The position numbers and the translations under genes were made by a program. Under the pieces are notes generated by a model. It saw nothing but the letters and a program-made list of their open reading frames with translations, was not told the origin of the DNA and searched no databases. Below are positions 17,646 through 33,022 of a DNA stretch of 40,179 nucleotides, one piece after another (the stretch's first letter is position 1; the number at the start of each line of letters is the position of its first letter). The stretch is from a virus. The stretch spans positions 1-40,179 of IMG/VR virus record IMGVR_UViG_3300038555_000008. One strand, 5' to 3'.

Positions 17646-17689
17646 GGATGTTCCTTTCAGTCAGGCAGCGAAAAGGGAGGCGTGAGGCG

Positions 17690-18670: not shown

Positions 18671-18707
18671 TCCCCGCACTTAGGCGGGGGGGATGGCGCT
18701 GACCGGC

Positions 18708-20084: not shown

Positions 20085-20792
20085 CTACGTCTTTTTTATC
20101 ACCGCCACAACGCGGCCGATAATATGGATTTCGCCATCGACCGCCGTGTCGTCCCGAACGCTCGGATTATCGCTCTTGATGACGATCGTTCCGTCAGCCC
20201 GAGTAGCTAGCCGCTTCACCATTCCCATTTCACCGATTGCACAAACCCAAATCAGATCGGCGAACGAAGGTCGCGTTTCAGACAGGTCGATCAGCATGAT
20301 ATCGCCGTCATCGATGGTCGGCGACATCGAATTGCCTCTTCCCGGTGCAAAACGCAGCTGGCCGACGGGGGCAGATGAATATCGGCGAACCCAATCCGTC
20401 GGAAAATAGCGTGCAGTCTCAGCAACCGGAAATCCATCCACGAAAGTCGCGCCCAAACCATAAGCAAGATCTATCTCGGGAATGAGGATCGCGCCTTCGA
20501 TCTCAACAGGGCGCTCCCCGACATCAAACACATCTGCCGCATCAGCATCGATAAAATCGTCGGCAGAGGCGCCAATCACATCGACGATCGCGCGAATCGT
20601 CCCGACCTTCGGCGTCGATGCTCCGGACATAATTGAATTGAGGGAGTTCCTCGAAATCCCCGCTTTCTCGGCGACGCTCGACGCAGGTCCGAAGGCTTTG
20701 ACCGCCTGCCGAAGACGAGCCGCCGAATGCTCGGTCCAGCCGAGAACGCGTGAATTGTCATTTTCCGGTTGACTTCTCACTTTACTTGTCAC
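20085..20792 (-). CDS. Prophage repressor, HTH plus S24 peptidase-like domain
   Basis: 235 residues. An XRE-type helix-turn-helix lies at about 36-60 (ASSVAEKAGISRNSLNSIMSGASTPKVGTIRAIV). A LexA/CI-like S24 domain follows, with Ser155 in GNSMSPTIDDGD and Lys193 in MGMVKRLA, the catalytic dyad for self-cleavage. It should keep early transcription off and be inactivated on DNA damage through RecA. Unlike Mu c, which lacks this peptidase, induction by SOS is expected (inference). GTG start at 20792; the intergenic gap to ner is 13 bp with overlapping control sites. Confidence 0.9.
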   Translation of the reverse strand: MTSKVRSQPENDNSRVLGWTEHSAARLRQAVKAFGPASSVAEKAGISRNSLNSIMSGASTPKVGTIRAIVDVIGASADDFIDADAADVFDVGERPVEIEGAILIPEIDLAYGLGATFVDGFPVAETARYFPTDWVRRYSSAPVGQLRFAPGRGNSMSPTIDDGDIMLIDLSETRPSFADLIWVCAIGEMGMVKRLATRADGTIVIKSDNPSVRDDTAVDGEIHIIGRVVAVIKKT

Positions 20793-20819
20793 TATTCATG
20801 TCAACATGAGAAATGACAT
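20769..20819. promoter_or_regulatory. Divergent early promoter and operator region
   Basis: Rightward, TTGACT (20769..20774) and TATTCA (20793..20798) are 18 bp apart, a good promoter match. The -10 lies only 7 bases before the ner ATG, so the ner message may be almost leaderless. Over the -10 lie TGTCA direct repeats (20787..20791, 20799..20803) and an inverted repeat ATGTCA/TGACAT (20798..20803, 20814..20819), candidate repressor/Ner sites. The opposite strand has TTGACA at 20799..20804 but no good -10. Confidence 0.6.
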
Positions 20820-21090
20820 CCAAAATGACCTCCGGGATTGGCACCCGGAAGACATCAAGGCGGAAATTCGCAAGCGCGGCGCCACCGTCGCGCAGTTGGC
20901 GCGCAACAGCGGCCTGTCGAAGCAGGCGCTTGGGCAATGCATCGAACGGCGCGCTTCGGAGCGCGGCGATCAAATTATCGCCGAATTTTTGGGCGTAAAA
21001 CCTCACCAAATCTGGCCCTCGCGTTACACTGCCAAAGGGCAGCGCATTCGTTTCTGCGCCCCTAGCGTTGAAGCCCGGATGTCCGCATGA
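20806..21090 (+). CDS. ner: Ner-like regulator
   Basis: 94 residues. DWHPEDIKAEIRKRGATVAQLARNSGLSKQALGQCIERR...GDQIIAEFLGVKPHQIWPSRY matches Mu Ner (same DWH start and IWPSRY end). Ner is a Cro-like negative regulator that shuts down the repressor and early promoters during lytic growth. It is the first gene of the rightward operon, divergent from the repressor, and its TGA overlaps the transposase ATG. Second-strongest identification here after the transposase. Confidence 0.92.
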   Translation: MRNDIQNDLRDWHPEDIKAEIRKRGATVAQLARNSGLSKQALGQCIERRASERGDQIIAEFLGVKPHQIWPSRYTAKGQRIRFCAPSVEARMSA

Positions 21091-22946
21091 CGCGGGCCTA
21101 TCACACCGGGCGCGCGGCGCCAACGTCCCACCAATGTTCCGCTGAATTGCCGTCTCAAACCGGCACATCGGGAGGCAAGGTGCCCGGCTATGCGTCGGCG
21201 CAGGAACTGGCGGGCGCTGTGCTCCCCGGCCTTCCGGCAACGAAGAGCGCTATGATCCGCCGCGCCAAGGCCGATGGTTGGGATTTCATCGACCGCGTTG
21301 GGCGCGGCGGCGGGCGCCTCTACCGCGTCGCCGACTTGCCGATCGAAGCGCAGCAGGCCTTGTTGCAACAGCGAATAAGCGCCGCTTCAGGCGCACCGGT
21401 CGGCCGTCCGAAAGGCAGCGACTATTTCACCCGCAATCCCGAAGTCGCTGCGGCCGTCGAGGCGATCCTTGCCAGCCGCCGCCTCGCGGCCCCCGGCGTG
21501 ATGGAGCTTCTGCAAGACGACTTCGTCACCCTGCCTTCGCTCCGCTCGCTTCGCCGTTTTATCGCCAAGGTGGAGGACGAGCGGAAGACCGTCATCCTGT
21601 CGATGCGCGATCCCGACGCCTTCAAGAGCAAATACCGTGTCTCGATCGGCCGCGCTGACGCCAACACCACCCACGCGCATCAGATTTGGGAAATCGACGC
21701 GACCAAGGCCGACGTGATGACCACCGAAGGCCGCAAGATGATCCTCGGCCTGATCGACCGTTGGTCGCGCCGCGTCCTCTTCATGGTCTGCCCGTCGGAA
21801 AGCGCGCAATCGGTGCGCCGCCTGCTCATCACCGCGATCGAGCGCTGGGGCGTCGTTCCCGAAACCGTCATGACCGACCAGGGCTCGGGCTTCATCAACG
21901 GCGCGATCGTCTCGGCCCTCGAAATGCTCGGCATCGAACATTGGCCGTGTCCACCCGCCTCTGGCGACAAGAAGCCGCATATCGAACGCGTCTTCGGCAC
22001 CTTCCAGCGCCAACGCACCGAACTCTTCGACGGCTATTTGGGGCATAGCGTTGCCGAGGCGCAGCAACTGCGCGCCAAGGCGCGCAAGGACAGTGGGCGC
22101 CCGGTCATCACCGCGAGCATGTCGCCCGCCGAGCTTCAGGCCGCGCTCGATGGCTGGACCGATGGCGTCTACCATCTCCGCGAACATGGCTCGTTGCGCA
22201 TGTCGCCGATGCGCAAATGGCAGTCCTCGCCTGTCCCGGCCCGCGCCGCGCCCGGCGCCGACGTGCTCCGCATGGCACTCTCGGCCCTCGTCGGCGCCCG
22301 CACCGTCGGCAAGCGCGGCATTCAGTGGCAGGGCGGTCGCTATTGGTCGCCCGCGCTCGCGCCTTGGGTCGCGCGCCAGGTGCTCGTCCGCCGCGACGAG
22401 GACGAGCTGGGCGAGCTGCTCGTCTTCAGCCCCGAGGGCGCGTTCATCGACATCGCGGTGAACCACGCCCGTTCCGGCCTGTCCGAAGCCGAATTCGCTG
22501 CCGAGGCGCGCGCGCAGCAGGCACGGTGGCTGCGCGAACAGCGCGCCGACCTGAAGGGCCGGGCGAAAGACTTCAATTTCGAGCGTGCGCGCGACGCGAT
22601 CCTGCGCCGCGACGCCGAAGCGGCGGGCAAGCTCGTCCAACTGCCGATGCCGACGCAGACGCATTCGACCCCGGCGATCGACACGCTCTCGGAAGCCGCG
22701 GGATCGGCAGCGCCCCAGCCGACGCGCCGCGAACGTCCCGCTGCCGCGACGATCGTGACGATGCCCAAAAGCCCGGCGGTCAAGATGCGCGAGGCCGACG
22801 CGATTATCGCGCGCGCCGATGCGGGCGAGGCCGTCGATGCCGACGCCCTTCGCCGTGCCCGCCTTTACGCCTCGACCAGCGAATATCGCGCCCAGCGCGC
22901 CGTTGCCGAGCACCTCGCAGCCCCCACCAGCAAGACATCCGCCTGA
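21087..22946 (+). CDS. MuA-like DDE transposase
   Basis: 619 residues. An N-terminal Mu-type winged helix (about 36-96: YASAQELAGAVLPGLPATKSA... GGGRLYRVADLP) binds DNA. A catalytic core has Asp204 (WEIDATKAD), Asp264 (VMTDQGSGF) and Glu300 (KPHIERVFG), the DDE triad of the RNase H-like fold. A MuA-like beta-barrel follows, then a C-terminal tail (from 500) that should contact the B partner. It cuts and joins phage ends into new targets for integration and replication, consistent with the 5-bp duplication seen. Starts ATGA with ner. Confidence 0.96.
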   Translation: MTRAYHTGRAAPTSHQCSAELPSQTGTSGGKVPGYASAQELAGAVLPGLPATKSAMIRRAKADGWDFIDRVGRGGGRLYRVADLPIEAQQALLQQRISAASGAPVGRPKGSDYFTRNPEVAAAVEAILASRRLAAPGVMELLQDDFVTLPSLRSLRRFIAKVEDERKTVILSMRDPDAFKSKYRVSIGRADANTTHAHQIWEIDATKADVMTTEGRKMILGLIDRWSRRVLFMVCPSESAQSVRRLLITAIERWGVVPETVMTDQGSGFINGAIVSALEMLGIEHWPCPPASGDKKPHIERVFGTFQRQRTELFDGYLGHSVAEAQQLRAKARKDSGRPVITASMSPAELQAALDGWTDGVYHLREHGSLRMSPMRKWQSSPVPARAAPGADVLRMALSALVGARTVGKRGIQWQGGRYWSPALAPWVARQVLVRRDEDELGELLVFSPEGAFIDIAVNHARSGLSEAEFAAEARAQQARWLREQRADLKGRAKDFNFERARDAILRRDAEAAGKLVQLPMPTQTHSTPAIDTLSEAAGSAAPQPTRRERPAAATIVTMPKSPAVKMREADAIIARADAGEAVDADALRRARLYASTSEYRAQRAVAEHLAAPTSKTSA

Positions 22947-22962
22947 CTGAAGGAGAATAGCC

Positions 22963-23733
22963 TTGATCGACCTTTTGACCCGCCCCGCGCCGGCACCCGC
23001 CGCGCCCCGGCGCGGATATGCCCCGCTCCCCAACATGGCGCTCGCGCTACAGACGATTGTCGAATGCACCGAGGCCGAGGAAGATCAGCCCCGCCTTGGC
23101 CTGCTCTACGGCAACAGCGGCTTCGGCAAGACCGTTGCCGCCGCGTTCGCCGCCGCACAGACCGGCTCGGTCTATATCGAGGCGAAGAGCCTCTGGACCG
23201 TGCGCGCGCTGCTGGAGGCGATTGCCGAGGAACTCGGCATCACCAAGCCGGAGCGCACGGCGCCACGCCTGCTGCGCCAGATTATCGACGAACTCAACCG
23301 CGCGCCGCGCCCGCTGATCATCGACGAGATGGACCACCTCGTCAAAAAGCAGATGGTCGAAATCATCCGCGACATTCACGACGCGACTTCGATCGCGATC
23401 CTGATGATCGGCGAAGAGGCGCTGCCTTCGAAGCTCAAGGAATGGGAACGGTTCGACAACCGTATCCTCGTCGCAACGCCCGCACAGCCTGCGACGGCCG
23501 AGGACGCGCTATTGCTCCGCGATCACTATGGCCTGAACGGCATCATCGCTGACGACCTCGCCATTTATTTCGCCGAGCGGTGCAAGGGCGTCACGCGCCG
23601 CATCGTCAACAACCTGCGCGCGGCTGCCCGCACCGCCGCGACCGAAGGCGTCGATACTATCGACCGCGCCTGGTGGGGACCGCGCCTCGTCACCAACGGC
23701 GACATCCCGACCCGCCGGAGCCTCGGCCAATGA
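22963..23733 (+). CDS. MuB-like ATPase, transposition target protein
   Basis: 256 residues, TTG start with a good AAGGAG site 8 bases upstream. Walker A YGNSGFGKT (49-57) and Walker B PLIIDEMDHL (116-125) are present, as is a sensor-like region (LMIGEEALP). AAA+ MuB proteins coat target DNA, stimulate the transposase and steer it away from the phage's own DNA. It lacks the N-terminal HTH part of Mu B (312 residues in Mu), as do several alphaproteobacterial versions (from memory). Its stop overlaps the next start (ATGA). Confidence 0.92.
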   Translation: MIDLLTRPAPAPAAPRRGYAPLPNMALALQTIVECTEAEEDQPRLGLLYGNSGFGKTVAAAFAAAQTGSVYIEAKSLWTVRALLEAIAEELGITKPERTAPRLLRQIIDELNRAPRPLIIDEMDHLVKKQMVEIIRDIHDATSIAILMIGEEALPSKLKEWERFDNRILVATPAQPATAEDALLLRDHYGLNGIIADDLAIYFAERCKGVTRRIVNNLRAAARTAATEGVDTIDRAWWGPRLVTNGDIPTRRSLGQ

Positions 23734-24086
23734 GCCACGATCTCCCGCCCATCCGGACAGGCGAGGCGCGCGCCTTTCGACAGTGCTCCTGCGGTCGCGT
23801 CGGCTGGTATGATTATCTTCCCTATTCGCTCTCGGTTCCGATCCTGGCGTTTCCGTGCGGGCATGATCCGCAGGCTGCGCGCTACATCACGGAAGACGAA
23901 TTCCACGCGGCGATAGCAATCCCGCAGCCGTTCCACGTCACCAGGGACGATATCAATCGGCTGCTCTGCGAAACGAACGGCAGAACGCTGCACGTCTGTT
24001 TCGGGCGCGATGAAGTGACCCTGCACCCCGATTGCAAATGGCCGATCCCGCTGCTCGCCGAATGGCGAGCGGGAGCACCCGCGTGA
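23730..24086 (+). CDS. Hypothetical early protein with Cys/His-like motif
   Basis: 118 residues. CSCGRVGWYDYLPYSL... FPCGHDP suggests a small metal-binding region (C-x-C-G ... C-G-H) at residues 19-45. The rest is unremarkable. ATG start overlaps the MuB stop by 4 bp, and its own stop overlaps the next GTG. No family recognised; the tight coupling to MuB places it in the early operon. Confidence 0.6.
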   Translation: MSHDLPPIRTGEARAFRQCSCGRVGWYDYLPYSLSVPILAFPCGHDPQAARYITEDEFHAAIAIPQPFHVTRDDINRLLCETNGRTLHVCFGRDEVTLHPDCKWPIPLLAEWRAGAPA

Positions 24087-24772
24087 CGTCCGCCGCCCTC
24101 CCGCGTTTCTGGCCGCCCCAGCATTGGGCCGCGCGCCAGCGTCTCGCCGACCCCGCCGAGGCGCTGTGGAGCGAGCTACGCATCGCGCGCGGCGCGATCG
24201 ACGTCGTCGAACTGACAATCCGCGCGATCGAGCATTGCGAGGACGCCTTCGCAATCCGCGGCGATGCCTTCCGCCGCTTCGATCAGCTGCTCGACGACTG
24301 GGTCGCGCGCGGCCTCGTCACCCTCACCGGCCATCCGGCCCGCTACGATCTTGTCAGGGAATATCAGCACTTGCGCTCGCCGCCACCGCCGCCCGCTCCG
24401 CGTCCCTTGCCATTTCCGAAACGCACCCAGCAGCAACGGTTGTGGTCGGCGATGAAGGTACTTCGGACCTTCGACCTGCCGACCCTGATGATGGCCGCCT
24501 CGGCAAACCGGCGCGCCGCCGCCGACATGGTCCGCCTGCTCGAACAGGGCGGCTGGCTTCGGGCGACGGCAAACGGCTGGACGACCGCCGCTTCCCGCAA
24601 ATGGGGGCCGGTCGTGCCGTCGATGCGCCGCGAGCGCGGCCGCGGCGGTTCCGTAACGCGCATCACCGACCGGATCAGCGGTCTCACGGTCGAAATTCCG
24701 GCGCGTTCGTCGGCGCGCTCCAGACGACAGGACGCTTCCAACAACGCCTTTGCAGACGGGGGGATAGGTTAA
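24083..24772 (+). CDS. Hypothetical early protein with winged-helix-like domain
   Basis: 229 residues. The middle (KRTQQQRLWSAMKVLRTFDLPTLMMAASANRRAAADMVRLLEQGGWLRATANGW) has the layout of a winged helix-turn-helix that might bind DNA. The first part (LWSELRIARGAIDVVELTIRAIEH... LLDDWVARGLVTLTGHPARYDL) may be a second helical domain. GTG start with a 4-bp overlap. Similar genes follow B in several Mu-like phages, but I do not know their role. Confidence 0.6.
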   Translation: MTSAALPRFWPPQHWAARQRLADPAEALWSELRIARGAIDVVELTIRAIEHCEDAFAIRGDAFRRFDQLLDDWVARGLVTLTGHPARYDLVREYQHLRSPPPPPAPRPLPFPKRTQQQRLWSAMKVLRTFDLPTLMMAASANRRAAADMVRLLEQGGWLRATANGWTTAASRKWGPVVPSMRRERGRGGSVTRITDRISGLTVEIPARSSARSRRQDASNNAFADGGIG

Positions 24773-24774
24773 CC

Positions 24775-25182
24775 ATGTCGGGTAACGTTAATAAAAACAG
24801 TGACTTGTCTAACCTTGACCGCGCCCGCGCCGCATGGGGTCCGAACTTGCCTCGCTGGGTCCAGCTGCTCGCCAGCGCCTGCGATGCGACCAGCCAACAG
24901 AGGGCGGGCGAGCGGATCGGCAAGTCCGGACCCTATGTCAGCCGCATCGTCCGCAACGACTATCCCGGCGATCTCGCCGAGGCGGAGAAGCTCGTCCGCG
25001 CCGCTTGGGGCAATGAGGATGTCGTCTGCCCGCTCTGGGGTCCGATCCCGCTCGCCAGCTGCATGACCGCGCGCCGCCGCACCCTGCCGCCGACGAACCG
25101 CGTCCATCACCTCCATCGCGGCACCTGCCCGACCTGTCCGAACAATAGCGACGGGCAGGGCTTCGACGAGGAGGCGGCCTGA
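24775..25182 (+). CDS. Hypothetical early protein, XRE-like fragment
   Basis: 135 residues, ATG after GGGGGATAGG. Residues 26-62 (PRWVQLLASACDATSQQRAGERIGKSGPYVSRIVRNDYPGD) look like an HTH that reads host/phage DNA (SGPYVSRIVR as recognition helix). The C-terminal part has a CPTCP pair and LHRGTCPTCPNN, possibly metal-binding. This matches a type of transcriptional-regulator-like gene found after MuB in alphaproteobacterial phages; the exact job is unknown. Confidence 0.6.
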   Translation: MSGNVNKNSDLSNLDRARAAWGPNLPRWVQLLASACDATSQQRAGERIGKSGPYVSRIVRNDYPGDLAEAEKLVRAAWGNEDVVCPLWGPIPLASCMTARRRTLPPTNRVHHLHRGTCPTCPNNSDGQGFDEEAA

Positions 25183-25298
25183 TGCGCCCGCCCGCCGAAG
25201 TTCGTCGTGCGCAATGGCGCGGCGCAGTCCTGACGGTCGTTTGGCTGTTCGTTCTGCTGTGGGCGCTGCTGACCGGCGTGATGGTGGTGACGCCGTGA
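25182..25298 (+). CDS. Single-pass membrane microprotein
   Basis: 38 residues: short basic start (RPPAEVRRAQWRGA) then one hydrophobic segment (VLTVVWLFVLLWALLTGVMVV). Shares one base (A) with the upstream TGA. It is followed by a similar membrane microprotein. Function unknown; perhaps membrane-targeted exclusion (speculation). Confidence 0.55.
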   Translation: MRPPAEVRRAQWRGAVLTVVWLFVLLWALLTGVMVVTP

Positions 25299-25408
25299 TC
25301 GCGCCGCCTCCGCCGCCGTCGCTTTGGCACCAGCTGTTGATGGCCGTCTCCAGCGTCCTCGCCGGCGCCTTCGTGGCGACCATCATCATTTTCGCCCCGC
25401 TCATCTGA
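25295..25408 (+). CDS. Second single-pass membrane microprotein
   Basis: 37 residues from a GTG overlapping the upstream stop by 4 bp: Pro-rich start (IAPPPPPSLWHQ) and one hydrophobic segment (LLMAVSSVLAGAFVATIIIFAPLI). Forms a tandem pair with the upstream protein. Function unknown. Confidence 0.5.
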   Translation: MIAPPPPPSLWHQLLMAVSSVLAGAFVATIIIFAPLI

Positions 25409-25419
25409 AAGGAATTCCC

Positions 25420-26019
25420 ATGGGCCGCCGTAAAGCCGCACCTCAACAAGCGCCGACGACACTCCCTGAGGCGATCGCCACGCTCGAACGCTATCTTTCC
25501 ATCACGGGTGAGATCGACCGCACGAAGACCGAAGCCGATCGTGCGATCCTTGCGATCCAGACGTCACGCGACGAACTCGTCGCGCCGATGAAGGCGCAGG
25601 CCGAAGATCTGTTCCTTCAGCTGCGCGCATGGTGGGGCGTCGCCGGGCCGGACATGACGAAGGGCCGCAAGTCGATCGAACTGGCCGGCGCCCTGATCGG
25701 CATCCGCAAGACGACGCCCAGCCTGAAACTGCCGCGCGGCATGAAGGTCGAAGAGGCCGTGGCGTTCGTCCAGGCGATCGTCGCCGACTATCCGGGCGCC
25801 CGCGATCTGCTTCGCGTCAAGACCGAGCTGGAAAAGCCCGCGCTCATCACGCTGCTGCGCAGCTCGACGGCCGTCGGTCCGGTGGCGGAGCGGATCTCGC
25901 GCGGCGGCTTCACCGTCGCGCAGCGTGACGAATTCTTCATCGATCGCGCGGCGCCGAAAGTGCCCGATCCCGAAACCGTCGAAACGCCCGCGCCCGCGAT
26001 TGCCGAGGTGGCGTCGTGA
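25420..26019 (+). CDS. gam: Gam-like host-nuclease inhibitor
   Basis: 199 residues. Helical coiled N-terminus (EAIATLERYLSITGEIDRTKTEADRAILAIQTSRDELVAPMKAQAEDLFLQLRAWW) then KGRKSIELAGALIGIRKTTPSLKLPRG, typical of Mu Gam proteins. Gam binds DNA ends and protects phage DNA from exonucleases during transposition. An RBS AAGGAATTCCC precedes the ATG at 25420. The C-terminus is Pro/Ala-rich. It sits in the semi-essential early region as in Mu. Confidence 0.88.
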   Translation: MGRRKAAPQQAPTTLPEAIATLERYLSITGEIDRTKTEADRAILAIQTSRDELVAPMKAQAEDLFLQLRAWWGVAGPDMTKGRKSIELAGALIGIRKTTPSLKLPRGMKVEEAVAFVQAIVADYPGARDLLRVKTELEKPALITLLRSSTAVGPVAERISRGGFTVAQRDEFFIDRAAPKVPDPETVETPAPAIAEVAS

Positions 26020-26270
26020 TCGTCGCCCACAGCAACGCGGCAGGCGAGCTGCTGCTCCACTTCCGTTTCGACAACGGCTGGACCGCCTCGTTGGCGCCGA
26101 ACGCCGACGGCACCGCCACGGTCGCCGCCTGGGCCAGCCACGAAGCCGAGCCAAGGTTCGGCCTGTGCCGCGTCGTCGGCGGCGGCCCCGTCGGCGCCGA
26201 ACAGGCCACAGCCTTCCTCTCCGACATCTTCAACGCAGCCGAGGTGAAATCCCATGACAAAACGATTTGA
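26016..26270 (+). CDS. Hypothetical FDNGW-motif protein 1
   Basis: 84 residues from a GTG overlapping the gam stop. Core LHFRFDNGWTASLAPNADGTATVAAWASHEAEPRFGL; related in layout to the next gene (RLNFDNGWAVSIVL). Beta-rich, probably a small globular protein. Tandem relatives suggest duplication. Function unknown. Confidence 0.6.
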   Translation: MIVAHSNAAGELLLHFRFDNGWTASLAPNADGTATVAAWASHEAEPRFGLCRVVGGGPVGAEQATAFLSDIFNAAEVKSHDKTI

Positions 26271-26520
26271 AGCGGACGTGTGCCCTGAGACGTTCGCGCC
26301 ACGCTTGCGCCTCAACTTCGATAACGGATGGGCCGTGTCGATTGTCCTCCGCATGGAGGCGAACAGCCGTTGCGAATTCGGCATGGCCTCTCTCGCGGCC
26401 TGCCCGACCGGGCGCTGGGGCACCGGTGCGACGGAGCTGGGGGAAAACGAGGCGTCGCCCGACGAAGTCGCGACATACGTCGCCATGATCGCGGCGCGCC
26501 CGCAGGTGGTGGCGTCGTGA
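26254..26520 (+). CDS. Hypothetical FDNGW-motif protein 2
   Basis: 88 residues, overlapping the previous gene by 17 bp. LRLNFDNGWAVSIVLRMEANSRCEFGMASLA and a helical C-terminus (ASPDEVATYVAMIAARPQV) align in order with the previous protein, so a tandem paralogue. Function unknown. Confidence 0.6.
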   Translation: MTKRFEADVCPETFAPRLRLNFDNGWAVSIVLRMEANSRCEFGMASLAACPTGRWGTGATELGENEASPDEVATYVAMIAARPQVVAS

Positions 26521-26783
26521 GTGACTATACCCTTATCCCCGCCTCGACGCTGCTGACCGAAACGGCGGGCGGGCCGCCCCGCACCGGCGGCATCGGCTTC
26601 ACGATCGACGCCGGACAGCTCAGCTTCGCGATCGCCGACGCGAACGGCAACGTGATGCTGGCAACGCTTCACGCAACGGTGCTCGACGAATTCTGCGGCA
26701 GGCTCGCCGATCATATCGCCGAAGTGTCGCCCGAGGCGGCGAAAGCCCAGCTGGAGGCCGAGTCATGGCCGACCATGCAATAA
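26517..26783 (+). CDS. Hypothetical early protein
   Basis: 88 residues from GTG (SDYTLIPASTLLTETAGG) overlapping the upstream stop by 4 bp. Central beta part (GIGFTIDAGQLSFAIADANGNVMLATLH) and a helical end. Loosely similar in size and order to the two preceding proteins, but without the FDNGW motif. The final 19 bases overlap the DnaA-like gene. Confidence 0.55.
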   Translation: MSDYTLIPASTLLTETAGGPPRTGGIGFTIDAGQLSFAIADANGNVMLATLHATVLDEFCGRLADHIAEVSPEAAKAQLEAESWPTMQ

Positions 26784-27154
26784 GTGACGCCGTCACTATC
26801 CGCGTCGATCGCTTCCGTCACTGGTTACCCCAGCTCGTGGCGGCGACGGCGGAGATCGGCGGAATGGACACGACCGAGCTGGTGGCGCCGTGCCGCATCG
26901 GATGGAACGTCAAGCTGCGCGCCGCAGTCATTCTCGCCGCGGTCGACGTCTTCGGCAAAAGCTGGAGCGAGATCGGGCGCGCCCTTGGCGGCCGCAATCA
27001 TGCGACGATGATCCATGCCTATAAGGCTGCCGAGCGGCTCGCCGAGCACGATGCAGAGTTCCGGAAGCTTTCGACGCTGATCTTCGCGGTAGCGCGCGAG
27101 ATCGCGCGGCGTCCGACCCTGACGGTCGAGATCGAGCCGGGGCAGCCGCTGTGA
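26765..27154 (+). CDS. DnaA domain IV-like DNA-binding protein
   Basis: 129 residues. RAAVILAAVDVFGKSWSEIGRALGGRNHATMIHAYKAAERLAE (52-94) is the DnaA C-terminal domain: the GGRNHATMIHAYK stretch (75-87) matches the DnaA signature (GGRDHSTV...A) that contacts DnaA boxes. There is no ATPase domain, so it cannot act as an initiator itself. It might bind DnaA boxes in host or phage DNA to redirect or block replication (inference). Unusual for Mu. Overlaps upstream gene by 19 bp. Confidence 0.8.
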   Translation: MADHAISDAVTIRVDRFRHWLPQLVAATAEIGGMDTTELVAPCRIGWNVKLRAAVILAAVDVFGKSWSEIGRALGGRNHATMIHAYKAAERLAEHDAEFRKLSTLIFAVAREIARRPTLTVEIEPGQPL

Positions 27155-27342
27155 AGCCCAATCCCGGTCACTGTCCCGAAGAGGCGATCGGCAAGCGCGT
27201 CCGCGTCCGCTTCGCCGACGGCTCGATCGCCAAGGACGTGCCCGGCGCCCCGCCGGGCTGGGCGGCCGATGGCCGGAACGGCTGCCGCTGGACGCTCACC
27301 AGCCATCCCCTCGACATCGCTGAATATGAGGTGATTTCATGA
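27151..27342 (+). CDS. Hypothetical small early protein
   Basis: 63 residues from a GTG overlapping the DnaA-like stop. KRVRVRFADGSIAKDVPGAPPGWAADGRNGCRWTLTSHPLDIAEYEVI has the look of a small beta-barrel-like protein with a repeated GR/W pattern. No family recognised. Confidence 0.5.
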   Translation: MKPNPGHCPEEAIGKRVRVRFADGSIAKDVPGAPPGWAADGRNGCRWTLTSHPLDIAEYEVIS

Positions 27343-27614
27343 AACCCGACGAAGAGAAGCTGCTCGCCTTCATCGCCAGTAAGATCGAAGCGACCGGCGA
27401 AGCCCCGACCTATAGGGAAATGCGGGCGCATACAGGACTTCAGAGCAATCACGGCGTTGCCCTTCGCATCGACCGCCTCTGCGCCAAGGGACACCTCATC
27501 CGCGACGCGCGCGTCCACCGCGGGCTGAAGCTCGCGGGCTCGCCGCTGGGAAATATCCCGACCGCCGAGTTGCAGGCCGAACTGGCGCGCCGCGAGCGGG
27601 AGAGCGAACGATGA
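27339..27614 (+). CDS. LexA N-terminal-like winged-helix protein
   Basis: 91 residues. KLLAFIASKIEATGEAPTYREMRAHTGLQSNHGVALRIDRLCAKGHLIRDARVHRGLKL (residues 7-66) matches the LexA DNA-binding domain (cf. I..TG..PT..E.A..LG..S....L..L..KG.I....RG). It has no peptidase part. Could be a phage regulator binding LexA-like sites or a decoy for SOS control (inference). ATG overlaps upstream TGA. Confidence 0.75.
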   Translation: MKPDEEKLLAFIASKIEATGEAPTYREMRAHTGLQSNHGVALRIDRLCAKGHLIRDARVHRGLKLAGSPLGNIPTAELQAELARRERESER

Positions 27615-27871
27615 CAACGCTCCTTCCCGACGAGGCGGCGATCGTCGCCGCATGGTCCGCGTCGGAGGCCGCCGCCGAGTTGCTGCGTTTCGCGCGCGAA
27701 GGCCGCTTCAGCGACAACATACCCTTTTCGGATGACGTTGTCGGCAAGCTCGCTGACGCCATGCTGAAGGTGATCGACATCGAGGGGCCATCGCCCTTCC
27801 TGATCGCCGAAGAGCGTGAGCTACTTGCCGCGTTTCGCGCCCACGTCGCCCAATTCATCGAAGGTTGGTGA
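27611..27871 (+). CDS. Hypothetical early protein
   Basis: 86 residues, ATG overlapping the upstream stop by 4 bp. Helical (EAAIVAAWSASEAAAELLRFAREGRF... VGKLADAMLKVIDIEGPSPFLIAEERELLAAFRAHVAQFIEGW). No recognised family. Confidence 0.55.
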   Translation: MTTLLPDEAAIVAAWSASEAAAELLRFAREGRFSDNIPFSDDVVGKLADAMLKVIDIEGPSPFLIAEERELLAAFRAHVAQFIEGW

Positions 27872-27873
27872 AA

Positions 27874-28095
27874 ATGAGCGACCTGCAATTCAAGTTGGCC
27901 GTGCAGCGCGTCACGCGCGGCAAGTTCGACATCGGCCTCTCCGGCGTGTTGCGCGATCTCTATAACGCCGGCCTTCCCGATCTCGGCGGCGCCCAGGTCG
28001 CGCGCCAACTTCGCGCGCTGGGCTATCGCCGCGATGGCTGGCACGGCACCGGCTATGACCGGACGCCTCGCTATGTGTGGGGGAACGTGTCGTGA
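27874..28095 (+). CDS. Hypothetical early protein
   Basis: 73 residues from ATG two bases after the upstream TGA; the short upstream TTG/GTG extension was not used. Basic and helical, with a layout (RVTRGKFDIGLSGVLRDLYNAGLPDLGGAQVARQLRALGYRRDGWHGTGYDRTPRYVWG) like small winged-helix proteins. No confident family. Confidence 0.55.
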   Translation: MSDLQFKLAVQRVTRGKFDIGLSGVLRDLYNAGLPDLGGAQVARQLRALGYRRDGWHGTGYDRTPRYVWGNVS

Positions 28096-28811
28096 GCGTC
28101 CGTCCCGCACCGCGCCGCGGCCCCGCTGCGCCCGCCGATCCCAAGGCCGCGCTGATGCGCGCGATCATGGCCGCCTGCAAGCGCCAGGGCATCGACAACG
28201 ACACCCGCCATGCCACGCAAAAGCGGGTCACCGGCAAGGACTCGATGACGGATATGACCGTCGCCGAACTGATGCGCCTGCGCGACCATTTCAACCGCGG
28301 CTGGAAGGGGCCGAAGGGCCAGCGCCCGCATATCGGCAAGGTCCGCGCGCTCTGGTGGTCGCTCTACTGGATCGGCGCTATCGAGCGCGTTGAAGACGAG
28401 GCGCTCAATGCCTTCGTCAAACGCCAGGCGCATATCCAGCACATTAATTTCCTCGACCATCGCGGCGCCATGCCGGTGATCGAAGGGCTGAAGGCCTGGT
28501 TGGAGCGCGAAGGCGTTATGTGGTGGTCGGCCGAACAGCTCGCCGGCGTGGTCGCGACCGGCGCAATGACATCGGCGGGCACGGCCTTTTCACAGGCCGA
28601 GGCCGATCGCCACGCCGTCCTCGACCAGCTGGCGATCCGCCTCGATCGCGCCGGCCTCATGAACCGCTTCGCGCTCTATGACTGGATAGGTGCGTGCGTC
28701 GGACGGGAGACGCCCCGGCAATGGTCGTTCTCAGCGTCCGAACTGGACCAAGGCCTCCGCGCCCTCGGCAAGAAATACCGCTCCCACCTCGCAAAGGTGC
28801 AGCGGCTGTGA
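28092..28811 (+). CDS. gemA: GemA-like (Mu gp16, DUF1018) regulatory protein
   Basis: 239 residues from a GTG overlapping the upstream stop. AALMRAIMAACKRQGIDNDTRHATQKRVTGKDSM and GPKGQRPHIGKVRALWWSLYWIGAIERVEDEALNAFVKRQAHIQHINFLD are the DUF1018/GemA pattern (Mu gp16). GemA affects host gene expression and gyrase-related supercoiling in Mu. The C-terminal 100 residues (from WWSAEQLAGVVATGAMTSAG) appear to be an additional helical region. Confidence 0.85.
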   Translation: MSVRPAPRRGPAAPADPKAALMRAIMAACKRQGIDNDTRHATQKRVTGKDSMTDMTVAELMRLRDHFNRGWKGPKGQRPHIGKVRALWWSLYWIGAIERVEDEALNAFVKRQAHIQHINFLDHRGAMPVIEGLKAWLEREGVMWWSAEQLAGVVATGAMTSAGTAFSQAEADRHAVLDQLAIRLDRAGLMNRFALYDWIGACVGRETPRQWSFSASELDQGLRALGKKYRSHLAKVQRL

Positions 28812-29323
28812 AACTCGATCGCCCCTGCACGATAGACGAGCTGCCGATCCCGAAAGACGCTCGGGTCACCAAGAAATGGACCGAGCAGATGCGTGAAATG
28901 GCCGCCCATATCGGCGCCTATCGCACGCTCCTGGTCGTAGACGCCCTTGGCGGGCAGCAGATCGATATTCCCAGCGATCCCGCCAACAATCGCATGGCGT
29001 CGTTCCTCGGCGACGAGGGCGCCGCGATCATGTCGCGGATCTACGGCGGCAACAAGCTGTGGGTGCCCGTTGCCCGCCCGGCGCTTAACGAGGCGCGGCG
29101 CGCTGGCATCATCGCCGCGATCCGCGAGCGCAAGATGACGATCGCCGAGGCGGCGCCGATCCTGAGGACGTCGCGCAGTTATCTCGGCTACCTCGTGAAC
29201 AAGACCGACGAGGGCGAGGAGGTTGAGCCCTACGTCCCGCGCCGGGGTCAGCCCGACCCGCGCCAGCTCGACATGTTTGCCGCCCCAGCGCCGATCACCG
29301 ATGAAACTGCGGCCGCTTCCTGA
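28808..29323 (+). CDS. Mor-like transcription activator (putative)
   Basis: 171 residues from a GTG overlapping gemA's stop. IGAYRTLLVVDALGGQQIDIPSDPANNRMASFLGDEGAAIMSRIYGGNKLWVPVA resembles the beta-rich dimer domain of Mu Mor/C. The following EARRAGIIAAIRERKMTIAEAAPILRTSRSYLGYLVNK would be a helix-turn-helix. Right after gemA is the position of mor in Mu, which turns on middle transcription. Identification is moderate: no exact signature, but order and domain layout fit. Confidence 0.65.
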   Translation: MKLDRPCTIDELPIPKDARVTKKWTEQMREMAAHIGAYRTLLVVDALGGQQIDIPSDPANNRMASFLGDEGAAIMSRIYGGNKLWVPVARPALNEARRAGIIAAIRERKMTIAEAAPILRTSRSYLGYLVNKTDEGEEVEPYVPRRGQPDPRQLDMFAAPAPITDETAAAS

Positions 29324-29666
29324 AACCGCCGCGCTCGCCCGGTCGATGACGGCGGCGGCCGATCAGCCCGACGCGATCATCGGCAAGCATCTGGCGCGGC
29401 GGCTATGGTCGGCGCTGAAGGCGCGCGAGGGCGACATATTGAGCGCGTTCCTGAATTGCGACGCGATGGAAATCCTCGACCCGACCTATCAGGCCGCTGC
29501 GATCCTGTTCGCGCGCGGCGTCTACGTCGAACCATGCCGGCGCTTGATCCCGACCCAGCCTCTCGTTTATCTCGCGACGTGGCCCGATGGCAGCAGCCGT
29601 AATCTGTCCGAAGCCAGCCTCCTCTATCTCGCCGGAATAGCCGCTAACGGCTGCCCGCTCCGGTGA
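29301..29666 (+). CDS. Hypothetical protein at end of early/middle operon
   Basis: 121 residues, ATG 23 bp before the end of the Mor-like gene. KHLARRLWSALKAREGDILSAFLNCDAMEILDPTYQAAAILFARGVYVEPCRRL... no family recognised. The last gene before the terminator at 29696..29721. Confidence 0.55.
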   Translation: MKLRPLPETAALARSMTAAADQPDAIIGKHLARRLWSALKAREGDILSAFLNCDAMEILDPTYQAAAILFARGVYVEPCRRLIPTQPLVYLATWPDGSSRNLSEASLLYLAGIAANGCPLR

Positions 29667-29695
29667 CCCGTCTCTGACAATGTGAACTCCACGCG

Positions 29696-29721
29696 CGGCG
29701 CCTGAAAGGCGCCGTTGTTTT
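29696..29721 (+). terminator. Rho-independent terminator between early/middle and packaging genes
   Basis: CGGCGCC-TGAAA-GGCGCCG followed by TTGTTTT: a 7-bp GC stem, 5-base loop and a T-rich tail. It separates the gemA/mor-like operon from the packaging operon, whose first start is only 21 bases further, so a downstream promoter has little room. Partial read-through or antitermination is likely. Confidence 0.8.
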
Positions 29722-29742
29722 GCTGCTGCATTGGGGTTTCAC

Positions 29743-30105
29743 ATGGGTTCAACACTGGCAAAGTTCATGGTCTATTGGCCGCTTGCCGTTTTCGCGCTGC
29801 CGATCCTGCTGGCGGTCGGCCTTCTCTGGCTCCGCACCAAGTTCCCCGAGCTGACCGCGTTCAACCAGGCGGTCAAAGACATCGCCGATCTCAAATCCAA
29901 GGTGGGTATCTTCGAAGTCGAGCTGAAGGAGCTTCGCAACGACATCGAAAGCGAGCCGACCCGCGCCCAGGTGCTAGCACAGCTCGCCGACGCGATCGCG
30001 CGGCTGAGCCGGGTCGAGGGCGGGATCGAGGGCGTCAACCGCCAGCTTCAGGCGCAAAGCCAGTGGATACAGGCCCTCGCGCTGCCGCCGGAGGGACGCC
30101 GGTGA
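29743..30105 (+). CDS. DUF2730-like membrane/coiled-coil protein
   Basis: 120 residues: one N-terminal membrane segment (FMVYWPLAVFALPILLAVGLLWL) followed by a coiled coil (AVKDIADLKSKVGIFEVELKELRNDIESE...RLSRVEGGIEGVNRQLQAQSQW). This is the shape of DUF2730 proteins found just before the DUF3486/terminase genes of Mu-like phages. Function unknown; could tether packaging or lysis components. Overlaps the next GTG by 4 bp. Confidence 0.75.
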   Translation: MGSTLAKFMVYWPLAVFALPILLAVGLLWLRTKFPELTAFNQAVKDIADLKSKVGIFEVELKELRNDIESEPTRAQVLAQLADAIARLSRVEGGIEGVNRQLQAQSQWIQALALPPEGRR

Positions 30106-30392
30106 TCCATCCTGCCATTGCTCCGACCGTTCGGCGAGCGATCCTCGATCTCATTCACGACGTCGGCGGCGAGGTCGATGATGACACTGCTACGATCTTG
30201 CTCAACGAGATCGGTCACCGCGTCGCCCGATCGGACGTCGCCGACGAAATCCGCTGGCTCGCCGACAAGGGGCTCCTGAAGGTCACCGAAACGCCGGCGA
30301 TGCTCGTCATCGCCTCGACGAGCGACGGCCGCGACACCGCGATGGGCCGCCTGCGGTTCGAAGGCGTCAGCCGTCACAAGACGGGCGAATGA
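30102..30392 (+). CDS. VpaChn25_0724-like winged-helix phage protein
   Basis: 96 residues from a GTG overlapping the upstream stop. RRAILDLIHDVGGEVDDDTATILLNEIGHRVARSDVADEIRWLADKGLLKVT is a winged-helix pattern of the VpaChn25_0724 family, which lies between DUF2730 and DUF3486 genes in transposable phages. Function unknown. Confidence 0.75.
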   Translation: MIHPAIAPTVRRAILDLIHDVGGEVDDDTATILLNEIGHRVARSDVADEIRWLADKGLLKVTETPAMLVIASTSDGRDTAMGRLRFEGVSRHKTGE

Positions 30393-30393
30393 C

Positions 30394-30927
30394 GTGGCAC
30401 CTCGTTCCTCAATCGAGCGCAACCCGGCCCTTCAGGCTGCCGTCGAAAAGCTGATCGCCGAGGGCGAGCACACGATCGACGACATCCACGAGGCTGTCGC
30501 CGAATATGGCGTCTCGCGCTCGGCCGTCGGCCGCTACGCCAACCGATATCGCCCACTCGTCGATACCATCATCCGCGACCGCGCCGTCCGGCAGGCGATG
30601 CATAAGCACCTGCCCGCCGGCATCGACACCGGCCTGATCGACATCGCCATCCATCGCGCGCAGTCGGAAGTCCTGCGCGCGATGGATGCCTTGGGCGACG
30701 ATGAGGAGCCTGCGAACGCCGATCGCATCGGCAAACTCGTCCGCGCCCTCAACGGCGTCATCAAGGCGATGCGCGAAAAGCGCGAGTTCGAGGAAGAGGT
30801 CCGCGCCAGCGAGCGCGCTCGCGCTGCAGACGCTGCGGCCGAGGCAATGACCGAGGCCGGGGCCGGCGAGGCGCAGATCGAGGCAATCCGGCGCAAAATC
30901 CTCGGAATGCGGGAAAAGCAAGGATGA
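30394..30927 (+). CDS. DUF3486 protein, small-terminase-like (Mu gp27)
   Basis: 177 residues; GTG start one base after the upstream stop. Contains an HTH (TIDDIHEAVAEYGVSRSAVGRYANRY) and helical body (ALNGVIKAMREKREFEEEVRASERARAA), matching DUF3486 (Mu gp27). By position it is the likely small terminase subunit that recognises the pac site near a phage end. Ends overlapping the next ATG by 4 bp. Confidence 0.85.
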   Translation: MAPRSSIERNPALQAAVEKLIAEGEHTIDDIHEAVAEYGVSRSAVGRYANRYRPLVDTIIRDRAVRQAMHKHLPAGIDTGLIDIAIHRAQSEVLRAMDALGDDEEPANADRIGKLVRALNGVIKAMREKREFEEEVRASERARAADAAAEAMTEAGAGEAQIEAIRRKILGMREKQG

Positions 30928-31349
30928 GCGCGACCGATCGGCCGCAGCCGCTCTTGCGTTTCGCGGGACGGAGACCGGAGGAGGGCGCGCGTGCCAGCGC
31001 GCCGTTTCCGCTGGCCGTCGCACTGCGCGATTATGCGATAGCGCAGGGCCTGGCGATCGACAAGCTGACGCGCAGCCGCGTGGCAGCATCGGACAGCATC
31101 CATCTCGCGATGACCGACCTCGCTGGTCGCTGTTGGAATATGCGCGTTTCCAACCATCGCCGCCCGCGTCGCACTGGCCATGCCGTCCCGCACGTCGACC
31201 TTGTCAGTCTGGACGGCGTCGCCGGCATCGCCGTCGGCCGTCGTCTGATTGACGAAATCCTCGCGGGCAATGTGCCGTGGTTCGATCCCGATGAAACCAT
31301 CCGCCCCCTCCCGCGCACTCGCCGCAACAGCAGGATACGGCGCCGATGA
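30924..31349 (+). CDS. Hypothetical packaging-region protein
   Basis: 141 residues. Basic, with HLAMTDLAGRCWNMRVSNHRRPRRTGHAVPHVDLVSLDGVAGIAVGRRLIDEILAG and a very basic end (RTRRNSRIRRR). It is between the small and large terminase genes and overlaps both by 4 bp; DNA binding is plausible. No family recognised. Confidence 0.55.
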   Translation: MSATDRPQPLLRFAGRRPEEGARASAPFPLAVALRDYAIAQGLAIDKLTRSRVAASDSIHLAMTDLAGRCWNMRVSNHRRPRRTGHAVPHVDLVSLDGVAGIAVGRRLIDEILAGNVPWFDPDETIRPLPRTRRNSRIRRR

Positions 31350-33022
31350 CCGCCGCCCAGGAAGCGCCGACGGTCCTCCTGCCTTATCAGGTCGAGAGCA
31401 TCGAACTCGCCGAGGAGCATCAGTTCCTCGTCGTCGAAAAGTCGCGCCGTATCGGCCTCTCCTACGCCTTTTCGCCGTGGGCGAACCTTATGGCATCCGC
31501 CGCGTCGGGCGCGCAGAACGTCTATTACATCGGATACAACCTCGACATGGCGCGCGAGTTCATCGGCTATTGCGCCGATTTCGCTCAGGCATTCGAGGAT
31601 GTCCGCGTCTCGCTCCCCGACGAGGATCGATCCGAAACCTTCGTCCAGCGCCGTTTCGACGGCAGCTATCTCGACACGGCGGGCAGGGTTCTGCCCGACG
31701 CGACTGACGGCGATTTCCGTTCGGATCGCGTTGTCCAGGAAGCGCGCGGCGGCTTCCTGATCAAGGGCGATGCCGGCAAGTCGATCAAGTCCTTCCGAAT
31801 TGACTTTCCGTCGGGCAAGGCCGTCGTCGCGCTGCCGTCCAGTCCGCGATCGGTGCGCGGTAAGCAGGGCATCTTCATAATCGATGAAGCGGCCTTTCAC
31901 GACAATCTGGAAGAGCTGATCAAGGCGATCCTCGCCGCCCTGATGTGGGGCGGCCGTGTTGTCGTCATCTCGACCCACGACGGCACCGACAATTATTTCA
32001 ACACGCTGATCGAAGAGATCCGCGCCGACAAGCGTGGCGGCCACGTCCATCGCATCACGCTGAAGGATGCCATTGCCGCCGGGCTCTACAAGCGCATCTG
32101 CCTCGTCCAGGGCAAGGACTGGACGCCGGAGGCCGAGACGAAGTGGGAGGCCGATCTCCGCAAGACCTATGGCGATGCCGCCGACGAAGAACTGGACGTT
32201 ATCCCGTCGCGCGGGACCGGCACCTATCTCGCGCGCGCCACGATCATCGAAGCGATGTCCGCCGATCTGCCCGTCGTCCGACTGCGCTGCCCCGACGGCT
32301 TCGAACGCTGGGACGACGAGCGCCGCCGCGATTGGCTGCTCGAATTCCTTGAGGATGAGGTGAAGCCTTGGCTCGCCAACTTCGATCCAGCCCGCCGCAC
32401 CTTCATGGGTCAGGATTTCGCGCGCTCCGGCGACGTCTCGCCGGTCAAGTTTGGGCAGCATGACGAATATATGCGCCTGGTCTGCCGGCTGACGCTGGAG
32501 ATGCGCAACGTTCCCTTCTCGGATCAGGAATTCATCCTCGAATGGCTGATCCGTCGCGTCCCCCATTTCGCGGGCGGCAAGATGGACGCGCGCGGCAACG
32601 GCTCGGCGCTGGCCGAAAAAATGCAGATGCTCTTCGGCTTCGACGTGATCGAGGCCGTCATGGCCAGCGACAAGACCTACCTGAAATTCATGCCGCTGCT
32701 GAAGGCCGGCATCGAGGATCGCACCGTCATCTTGCCCTTTGACGAGGGCGAACTCGACGATTTGCGGATGATCAAAATGGTCCGCGGCATCCCGAAAATC
32801 CCCGATGGTCCGCAGCGGAGCAAGGAAGGCGGCAAGAGCGCCAAGCGCCACGGCGACAATGCGATCGCCGACATGCACCTGATCGCCGCCGCCGCCGAAG
32901 ATCCCGGCGACATCGAATTCATGAGCGCCGGCTCGCGCACCAGCGAAACTGGCGATTTCGGCACCAGCAATCGCGGCTTCGGCACCGTGTCGCGCCGCTC
33001 ACTCGGAGGATATGGACTATGA
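31346..33022 (+). CDS. Terminase large subunit, Mu gp28-like
   Basis: 558 residues. ATPase: Walker A-like VVEKSRRIGLSYA (29-41), Walker B GIFIIDEAA (175-183), coupling motif VVVISTHDGTDN (206-217). Nuclease: GQDFARSGDVS (Asp357), MDARGNGS (Asp414), HGDNAIADMHL (Asp504/Asp509) supply metal-binding acids. It pulls DNA into the prohead and cuts host DNA beyond the phage end. Start overlaps upstream by ATGA; the stop overlaps the portal start. Confidence 0.92.
   Translation: MTAAQEAPTVLLPYQVESIELAEEHQFLVVEKSRRIGLSYAFSPWANLMASAASGAQNVYYIGYNLDMAREFIGYCADFAQAFEDVRVSLPDEDRSETFVQRRFDGSYLDTAGRVLPDATDGDFRSDRVVQEARGGFLIKGDAGKSIKSFRIDFPSGKAVVALPSSPRSVRGKQGIFIIDEAAFHDNLEELIKAILAALMWGGRVVVISTHDGTDNYFNTLIEEIRADKRGGHVHRITLKDAIAAGLYKRICLVQGKDWTPEAETKWEADLRKTYGDAADEELDVIPSRGTGTYLARATIIEAMSADLPVVRLRCPDGFERWDDERRRDWLLEFLEDEVKPWLANFDPARRTFMGQDFARSGDVSPVKFGQHDEYMRLVCRLTLEMRNVPFSDQEFILEWLIRRVPHFAGGKMDARGNGSALAEKMQMLFGFDVIEAVMASDKTYLKFMPLLKAGIEDRTVILPFDEGELDDLRMIKMVRGIPKIPDGPQRSKEGGKSAKRHGDNAIADMHLIAAAAEDPGDIEFMSAGSRTSETGDFGTSNRGFGTVSRRSLGGYGL

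What the first reader, a model, noticed from the sequence alone, without database searches (positions are those of the whole stretch)
26765..27154. Phage protein with isolated DnaA domain IV
The signature GGRNHATMIHAYK is on a 129-residue protein without the AAA+ part. It could compete for DnaA boxes, redirect replication during transposition, or sense replication state.
Basis: partly seen in the sequence, partly recalled or inferred. Interest (0 to 1): 0.5.

Follow-up and report, generated by a model that had tools for sequence, protein, structure and literature searches.

The report
Mu-like phage's lone DnaA DNA-binding domain
A Mu-like virus of sphingomonad bacteria carries just the DNA-gripping part of the bacterial replication starter DnaA as a small separate protein, which is probably reused as a gene switch rather than to interfere with the host's replication.

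Summary
Confirmed: window 26765-27154 (+) encodes a 129-aa protein whose residues 19-112 are a complete DnaA domain IV: Pfam Bac_DnaA_C 33.2 bits (cut-off 31.5), model covering all 94 residues of E. coli domain IV at rmsd 1.6, Z 14.9, no AAA+ part. The gene lies in a Mu-like early operon between gam and gemA. Of 41 related loci 19 carry such a protein, always in that interval; 0 of 115 more distant Mu-like loci do. It is under purifying selection. The DnaA-box idea is not supported: the phage has no DnaA box (one with a mismatch, 5.4 expected), carriers as a group are not enriched, and several residues invariant in the 14 alphaproteobacterial DnaA rows compared (R398, P406, Q408, K415, P423, D433) plus T435 are replaced; R399, R407, H434 and T436 remain. 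Best explanation (0.55, function inferred): a phage transcription regulator working like GafY/GafA of gene transfer agents, with its own target site. Effects on host replication remain possible. A lone LexA DNA-binding domain is encoded 184 bp downstream. New variant of a known kind.

The parts
26765..27154 (+). stand-alone DnaA domain IV protein, 129 aa (the finding)
   Evidence: translation; PF08299 over cut-off; fold = 1j1v
26837..27025 (+). Bac_DnaA_C match within it (residues 25-87), including the recognition-helix signature GGRNHATMIHAYK
27339..27614 (+). isolated LexA DNA-binding domain, 91 aa, same operon
   Evidence: PF01726 36.4 bits, cut-off 23.7; TIGR00498 35.2 bits, under the 110.95 cut-off for whole LexA
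27151..27342 (+). conserved 63-aa neighbour that overlaps the stop codon of the DnaA-IV gene
   Evidence: 68-95% identical in the six nearest carriers L008-L011, L033, L100
26517..26783 (+). upstream ORF overlapping the DnaA-IV start (start codon uncertain; the longest form is 26328-26783)
   Evidence: homologues in relatives
25324..26019 (+). Mu Gam-like end-protection protein (start uncertain)
   Evidence: PF07352 46.4 bits, phrog_491
28077..28811 (+). GemA
   Evidence: PF06252 77.5 bits, phrog_286
28694..29323 (+). Mor/C-like transcription activator (start uncertain); the only ORF of the window that a Mor model built here matched
   Evidence: phrog_836; Pfam Mor only 14.5 bits, under cut-off; model from 37 rows
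21087..22946 (+). MuA-like transposase
   Evidence: PF00665, PF09299, PF02316; phrog_310
22963..23733 (+). MuB-like AAA ATPase
   Evidence: PF13401; phrog_296
20806..21090 (+). Ner-like regulator
   Evidence: PF13693 93.7 bits; phrog_769, named transcriptional repressor
20085..20792 (-). S24/XRE-type repressor
   Evidence: PF00717, PF01381

Best explanation
The protein is a DnaA domain IV separated from the rest of DnaA and used by a lineage of alphaproteobacterial Mu-like phages as an early-expressed, sequence-specific DNA-binding regulator, most likely a transcription regulator of phage (and perhaps host) promoters, working like GafY/GafA of gene transfer agents. Shown here: fold, lack of an AAA+ part, operon position between gam and gemA, conservation of that interval, purifying selection, retention of the minor-groove arginine and the helix-turn-helix core, and loss of several residues shared by alphaproteobacterial DnaAs. 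Inferred: it is made with the early transcript; it binds DNA at a site different from the 9-mer DnaA box; it contacts RNA polymerase or blocks a promoter. In 8 of 22 phage rows an N-terminal heptad repeat suggests dimers; the window's own clade lacks it and has instead conserved N- and C-terminal extensions.
For: Domain and fold. Same interval in 19 of 19 carriers among 41 related loci (Gam not detected in 4 of them, GemA in 2), and upstream of gemA in three other Mu-like contexts: L189 Sphingobium faniae, L230 and L231 from the order of Aureimonas. DnaA-invariant residues replaced while R407 (22 of 22 phage rows), H434 (20 of 22) and R399 (17 of 22, K in 3) stay. No DnaA-box enrichment in the phage or in carriers as a group. 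Stand-alone DnaA-IV relatives with tested function are transcription activators: GafY binds about 20 chromosomal regions and the published model has it contact RpoD domains 3-4 (PMC11150451, passages); mutations in the DnaA-like domain of GafA impair RcGTA activation (PMC9638019, passages). The phage profile matches the GafY profile over 100 columns, E 6.3e-15. Three phages without DnaA-IV have a small helix-turn-helix ORF in the same interval: L162 over the Pfam cut-offs of HTH_23 and HTH_28, L027 and L031 under cut-offs, with sigma-region-4 or GerE among the weak matches. Purifying selection. Heptad repeat in 8 of 22 phage rows (by inspection).
Against: No binding site, target promoter or RNA-polymerase contact was found; inverted-repeat and promoter-like scans gave nothing usable. 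The phage already has a Mor/C-like activator. The phage proteins form their own group apart from the 15 GafY rows in a poorly resolved tree, so shared function with GafY is analogy. Similarity to the DnaA profile (E 2.4e-17 over 66 columns of a profile cut to 69) is at least as strong as to GafY. 22 of 41 related loci have no detectable DnaA-IV (one, L007, is cut off before the interval), so it is not essential to the lineage. A helix-turn-helix alternative was recognised in only 3 of the 16 non-carriers whose interval was listed; of 5 candidate ORFs sent to Pfam, those of L012 and L017 gave no match.
Confidence: 0.55

Rival explanations
1. Interference with host replication: the lone domain IV occupies DnaA boxes at oriC or DnaA-regulated promoters, or binds Hda/DnaA, and so slows or triggers host initiation during replicative transposition.
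For: Same fold as the box-binding domain; R399, R407, H434, T436, H439 kept; a prophage protein that acts on DnaA is known (YfdR binds DnaA and its gene cluster inhibits initiation, PMC4776307, abstract); GafY was first reported as HdaB, a replication stimulator (title seen in the reference list of PMC9632790); DnaA boxes are scarce in the phage itself, as one would want for an agent aimed at the host.
Against: Several DnaA-invariant residues replaced, including T435, described as base-contacting in PMC9638019, and D433, Q408, R398, K415, P423; variation at these positions among the phage rows argues against one shared target; the authors of PMC9632790 propose that GafY does not act on oriC replication via DnaA.
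Confidence: 0.22
2. Accessory factor of phage DNA transactions: it binds phage ends or the centre and helps transpososome assembly, target choice or replisome loading.
For: Next to gam and downstream of muA/muB in the early operon; in another mobile element, the TnpA-REP transposases, the same domain is fused to a transposase (PMC6006769, passages).
Against: No enrichment of box-like sites; not found in 22 of 41 relatives with related MuA/MuB (one of them truncated) nor in 115 of 115 more distant loci, many of them partial; the ends of the phage were not defined here.
Confidence: 0.13
3. A recent, still decaying capture of the host dnaA gene's 3' end without function.
For: Score only just over the Pfam cut-off (33.2 vs 31.5 bits).
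Against: dN/dS well under 1; conserved interval; the phage rows branch together (20 of 22 plus L005, support 94/98) away from host DnaA.
Confidence: 0.04

Closest known systems
GafY (also called HdaB, CCNA_01111) of Caulobacter and its stand-alone homologues in Hyphomicrobiales; N-terminal domain of Rhodobacter GafA
   Same: Small stand-alone (GafY) DnaA domain IV; phage-derived setting; R399, R407 and T436 shared; profile match E 6.3e-15 over 100 columns.
   Different: All 15 GafY rows have R where DnaA has H434, H where it has K415, and one residue fewer in the GGR turn; 20 of 22 phage rows keep H434. GafY sits beside gafZ (DUF6456) and/or sufE; the phage protein sits between gam and gemA, and no neighbour that was scanned matched DUF6456. 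Separate branches of the tree.
DnaA domain IV of bacterial DnaA (PF08299; 1j1v)
   Same: Whole fold, Z 14.9, rmsd 1.6 over 94 of 94 residues.
   Different: No AAA+ part, several DnaA-invariant residues replaced; only 30.1 bits against 343.9 needed for the DnaA equivalog TIGR00362.
Phage stand-alone DnaA-IV proteins in public records: Sulfitobacter phage phiGT1 gp62 (annotated 'DnaA C-terminal domain IV'); hypothetical proteins of Bradyrhizobium phage ppBeUSDA76-2 and Microcystis phage Mvi-Yong1342-1
   Same: Same domain alone in a phage.
   Different: No Mu-type genes in the stretches looked at, 15-16 kb each; low identity (30-34%).
TnpA-REP (HUH transposase) subgroup 2.1.2 with C-terminal Bac_DnaA_C (PMC6006769)
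   Same: DnaA-IV detached from DnaA in a mobile element; that paper notes that the flanking repeats do not resemble DnaA boxes (passages).
   Different: Fused to a transposase; different element.

Membership tests
Bac_DnaA_C (DnaA domain IV, PF08299) | score over the curated gathering cut-off | tested here: met
   33.2 vs 31.5 bits
Bac_DnaA_C (DnaA domain IV, PF08299) | domain IV fold over its whole length | tested here: met
   94 of 94 residues of 1j1v, Z 14.9, rmsd 1.6, on a predicted model
DnaA initiator | AAA+ domain plus domain IV, score over the DnaA equivalog cut-off | tested here: not met
   129 aa, only the domain IV region matches; 30.1 vs 343.9 bits
DnaA initiator | DNA-reading residues R399, D433, H434, T435 and neighbours as in host DnaA (roles of D433 and H434 recalled; R399 and T435 from PMC9638019) | tested here: not met
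   R399 and H434 kept; D433 is N, T435 is A, R398 is C, Q408 is A, K415 is V
DnaA initiator | binds DnaA boxes | not testable with these tools
   needs gel shift
GafY | small stand-alone DnaA-IV-like protein | tested here: met
GafY | gafZ and/or sufE next door | tested here: not met
   neighbours are small genes, Gam, GemA and Mor; the 15 GafY rows have gafZ and/or sufE within the stretch fetched
GafY | groups with GafY in the tree; R at position 434, H at 415 | tested here: not met
   window protein has H at 434 and V at 415; the GafY rows are a separate group, support 88/92
GafY | activates promoters, contacts RpoD | not testable with these tools
   needs experiment
Mu-like transposable phage | MuA, MuB, Gam, GemA and Mor/C genes | tested here: met
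   Mor/C by PHROG only

The most novel reading that the evidence does not exclude
The early operon of these phages carries the severed DNA-binding domains of two host master regulators, DnaA (replication) and LexA (SOS), as separate small proteins about 0.2 kb apart. Together they could sit on host and phage operators without the parts that sense ATP/replication or RecA, taking over both control circuits during replicative transposition.
Probability: 0.12. Interest if true: 0.7.

Novelty: new variant of a known kind. Interest (0 to 1): 0.42.

Why it matters
It shows a second phage-related setting, besides gene transfer agents, in which DnaA's DNA-binding domain has become a separate protein in a conserved gene position, here the early operon of Mu-like phages. 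That suggests that DnaA-IV is a general-purpose phage DNA-binding module with its own specificities, and warns against reading such genes as replication initiators. Inducible Mu-like prophages are known in the same bacterial order (Citromicrobium, PMC12486242, passages; Sphingomonadales; whether they carry this gene was not checked), so a test system may exist.

Tried and rejected
DnaA boxes in the phage: none exact, not enriched. Replacement of Mor by the DnaA-IV protein: my first idea, dropped because a Mor/C-like gene lies just downstream. PHROGs and PADLOC: no match for the protein. A scan of the 84,980-species genome collection with the window clade's own patterns gave 186 stretches and no confirmed relative; it was not sensitive, since it missed L100 (55% identical), found later through MuB. 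A viral scan with the diverse alignment was not possible. Motif and inverted-repeat search in intergenic stretches gave nothing usable. Plasmid search: 8 records, all under 60% identity: two places annotated dnaA, three unannotated Acinetobacter places, three 'helix-turn-helix' proteins, not followed. L226 and L227 looked to the eye like TnpA-REP transposases with a C-terminal DnaA-IV; Pfam showed no transposase family at E 0.01 or better and their DnaA-IV matches are under the cut-off (30.3 and 23.6 bits), so that label is unproven.

Literature: searches listed no paper that by title, abstract start or the passages opened describes a DnaA-IV protein in Mu-like phages; only the held open-access library was searched, and most listed papers were not opened. 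Fujikawa 2003 (contacts) and Frandi & Collier 2020 (HdaB) are not held. Contact roles rest on PMC9638019 passages for R399, S400, T435, R442, K443 and on recall for the others.

Counts and what was left out: the 41 'related loci' are L007-L037, L100-L103 and L162-L167. They include near-duplicates (L009/L010, L015/L016, L019/L102, and L012/L101 by their identical match tables) and L007, which ends inside gam; several others are partial. One search used 156 MuB-related loci, that is all and 59 of the 62 (L159-L161, the weakest matches, left out); one locus outside the near clade, L140, gave a sub-threshold match (E 0.078). The DnaA rows are 14 of 30 available: one search found the frame in 28 of 35 loci, of which 12 were used, plus L229 and L233. 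The tree and residue tables use 22 phage rows; L086 (same as L185), L097 (same as P0002) and L099 (same as L098) were left out. L235 is called Mu-like only on one weak MuA match (E 4e-7). In one search the heptad pattern flagged 12 of 22 phage rows; four (P0002, L089, L093, L191) are not coiled-coil-like on inspection and are not counted. It flagged 0 of 37 other rows, but the DnaA rows had been cut short at the N-terminus, so that is no fair control.

Full report
WHAT IS THERE. The ORF 26765-27154 (+) encodes 129 residues with GGRNHATMIHAYK at 75-87. Pfam Bac_DnaA_C matches residues 25-87 at 33.2 bits, cut-off 31.5; no PHROG matches. The closest solved sequence is E. coli DnaA domain IV on DNA (1j1v, E 4.8e-5). 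An AlphaFold model from 14 phage sequences (pLDDT 81) superposes on all 94 residues of 1j1v with Z 14.9 and rmsd 1.6; Foldseek's 12 best chains are all DnaA, best E 1.3e-3.

SURROUNDINGS. The window is held as an IMG/VR virus record. Its centre holds a Mu-like early region: S24/XRE repressor (-), Ner-like, MuA, MuB, Gam, several small genes, the DnaA-IV protein, a LexA DNA-binding domain alone, GemA and one Mor/C-like activator. The DnaA-IV gene overlaps the end of the ORF before it and the start of the one after it, so it is probably translated from the early transcript (inference). Head, neck and tail genes lie to the left on the minus strand; terminase, portal and minor head genes lie to the right on the plus strand. 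Oppositely transcribed arms separated by regulatory genes are described as typical of phage B3 (PMC8705779, passages).

RELATIVES. With MuB as query I collected related transposable phages. The Pfam model at E 0.01 found DnaA-IV in 14 of 46 viral records (11 over the cut-off) and 0 of 33, and in 3 of 7 further ones. Two genome loci also carry it: L102 (Sphingomonas sp. UBA1000) over the cut-off, and L100 (Sphingomonadales MAG) at 26.2 bits, under it. A search with models built here gives 19 of 41 loci of the near clade and 0 of 115 others. In all 19 the gene lies after Gam (in the 4 where Gam was not detected, after the homologue of window 24787-25182) and before GemA (before Mor in the 2 where GemA was not detected). 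The order DnaA-IV then GemA also occurs in a different Mu-like element of Sphingobium faniae with a full-length MuB (L189) and in two elements from genomes of the order of Aureimonas, Hyphomicrobiales (L230, L231). In 147 Sphingomonadales genomes, 6 have a match on an ORF other than a DnaA (one further 254-aa frame at 107.9 bits was taken as a cut DnaA). One of the 6 is a phage like that of P0002 (G172), one is L189, one is untyped (L225, 66.1 bits), two are longer proteins of unproven kind (L226, L227), and one is a 99-aa frame that the models built here did not find again.

WHAT THE RESIDUES SAY. Numbered on E. coli DnaA, 14 alphaproteobacterial DnaA rows are invariant at S396, R398, R399, P406, R407, Q408, K415, T418, S421, P423, G431, R432, D433, H434, T436, V437 and H439 among the 27 positions tabulated; T435 is T in 13. 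The window protein keeps R399, R407, S421, G431, R432, H434, T436 and H439 and has lost the rest. Among 22 phage rows R407 is kept in 22, H434 in 20, R399 in 17 (K in 3), T435 in 9, R398 in 3 and Q408 in 0. DNA binding is thus very likely, DnaA-box reading unlikely for this protein and variable between phages. The phage rows form a group of 20 of 22 plus the Microcystis phage protein (94/98), apart from 15 GafY rows (88/92) and 14 DnaA rows (75/61). With 95 columns many forks are unresolved, and one clade of all 22 is not rejected (p-AU 0.093). A recent copy of host dnaA is therefore unlikely. Selection is purifying (dN/dS 0.32 NG86, 0.17 YN00).

DNA SITES. The window has no TTATNCACA and one place with one mismatch, against 5.43 expected. 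TKWTNCACA with up to one mismatch gives 27 against 36.1. Over the 41 loci, the 19 carriers have 30 sites with up to one mismatch against 40.9 expected and 2 exact in 330 kb (both in near-duplicates L019 and L102); the 22 non-carriers have 53 against 86.8 and 1 exact in 418 kb. Single loci exceed expectation in both groups (L166, a carrier, 5 against 1.6; L031, a non-carrier, 5 against 1.0). There is no sign that carriers collect DnaA boxes.

HOW IT MOST LIKELY WORKS. The functionally studied stand-alone relative is GafY, and GafA has the same domain at its N-terminus. GafY, homologous to DnaA domain IV, had been reported to alter gene copy number and division, but the authors of PMC9632790 explain those effects by gene transfer agent production (passages). 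GafY binds about 20 chromosomal regions, and the model of PMC11150451 has it contact RpoD domains 3-4 with help from IHF (passages). Mutations in the DnaA-like domain of GafA impair activation (PMC9638019, passages). The phage profile matches the GafY profile over 100 columns (E 6.3e-15) and a 69-column DnaA profile over 66 (E 2.4e-17). Eight of 22 phage proteins carry an N-terminal heptad repeat (by inspection), which suggests dimers; the window's clade does not. Three phages without DnaA-IV have a small helix-turn-helix ORF in the interval, one of them over Pfam cut-offs. From this I infer an early phage transcription regulator with its own target site, 0.55. Interference with host replication stays possible, 0.22; an accessory of transposition 0.13.

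NOVELTY. Stand-alone DnaA-IV proteins are known in phages (phiGT1 gp62 is annotated so) and in gene transfer agents. What I did not find in print (searches, open-access library only) is the conserved family in the gam-gemA interval of alphaproteobacterial Mu-like phages. I rate it a new variant of a known kind. The bolder reading, that the operon carries the cut-off DNA-binding domains of DnaA and LexA side by side to override both host circuits, is not excluded. The LexA domain is real (36.4 vs 23.7 bits); tblastn found it in 15 of 19 DnaA-IV carriers (in one of them, L036, outside the MuB-GemA stretch) and in 8 of 22 others. These are lower bounds: L022 has it by Pfam but was missed. Its presence without DnaA-IV shows that the two are not an obligate pair.

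Noticed in passing
window 27339-27614: Isolated LexA DNA-binding domain (PF01726) in the same early operon; common in related phages, also in ones without DnaA-IV.
   Followed up: partly
window 38954-39727: Second repressor-like gene (phrog_4, transcriptional repressor) besides the one at 20085-20792.
   Followed up: no
window 1940-18679 (-) versus 20806-39727 (+): Head/tail genes on the minus strand left of the repressor, early and packaging genes on the plus strand: a B3-like layout.
   Followed up: partly
window 1-221 and 36312-36559: In the related prophage of G172, window 1-221 matches in inverted orientation next to the stretch matching 38596-38898, and 36312-36559 matches in inverted orientation just before the repressor region: rearrangement, duplication or record ends.
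   Followed up: no
window 33019-35061: Portal-like protein whose C-terminal part (residues 441-592) matches phrog_755, named RNA ligase.
   Followed up: no
window 29695-29715: Terminator-like hairpin with T-run some 370 bp after the Mor/C-like gene (2.7 such sites expected by chance in the region scanned).
   Followed up: no
window 27116-27151 (protein C-terminus): The C-terminal tail is conserved in the window's clade (EPELPL in P0002, L093 and L191, EPELAL in L089, EPQFAL in L098, EPGQPL in the window); possibly a linear binding motif.
   Followed up: no
L226 5150-6130 (+), L227 6800-7633 (-): Sphingomonad proteins with a C-terminal DnaA-IV-like region (30.3 and 23.6 bits, under the cut-off) and an N-terminal part that looks TnpA-REP-like to the eye; Pfam gave no transposase match. 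TnpA-REP fusions of this kind are described in PMC6006769.
   Followed up: partly
L225 1966-2484 (+); L232 6417-6857 (-): Further stand-alone DnaA-IV proteins (66.1 and 49.2 bits) without recognised Mu, GafZ or SufE neighbours in the stretch fetched.
   Followed up: no
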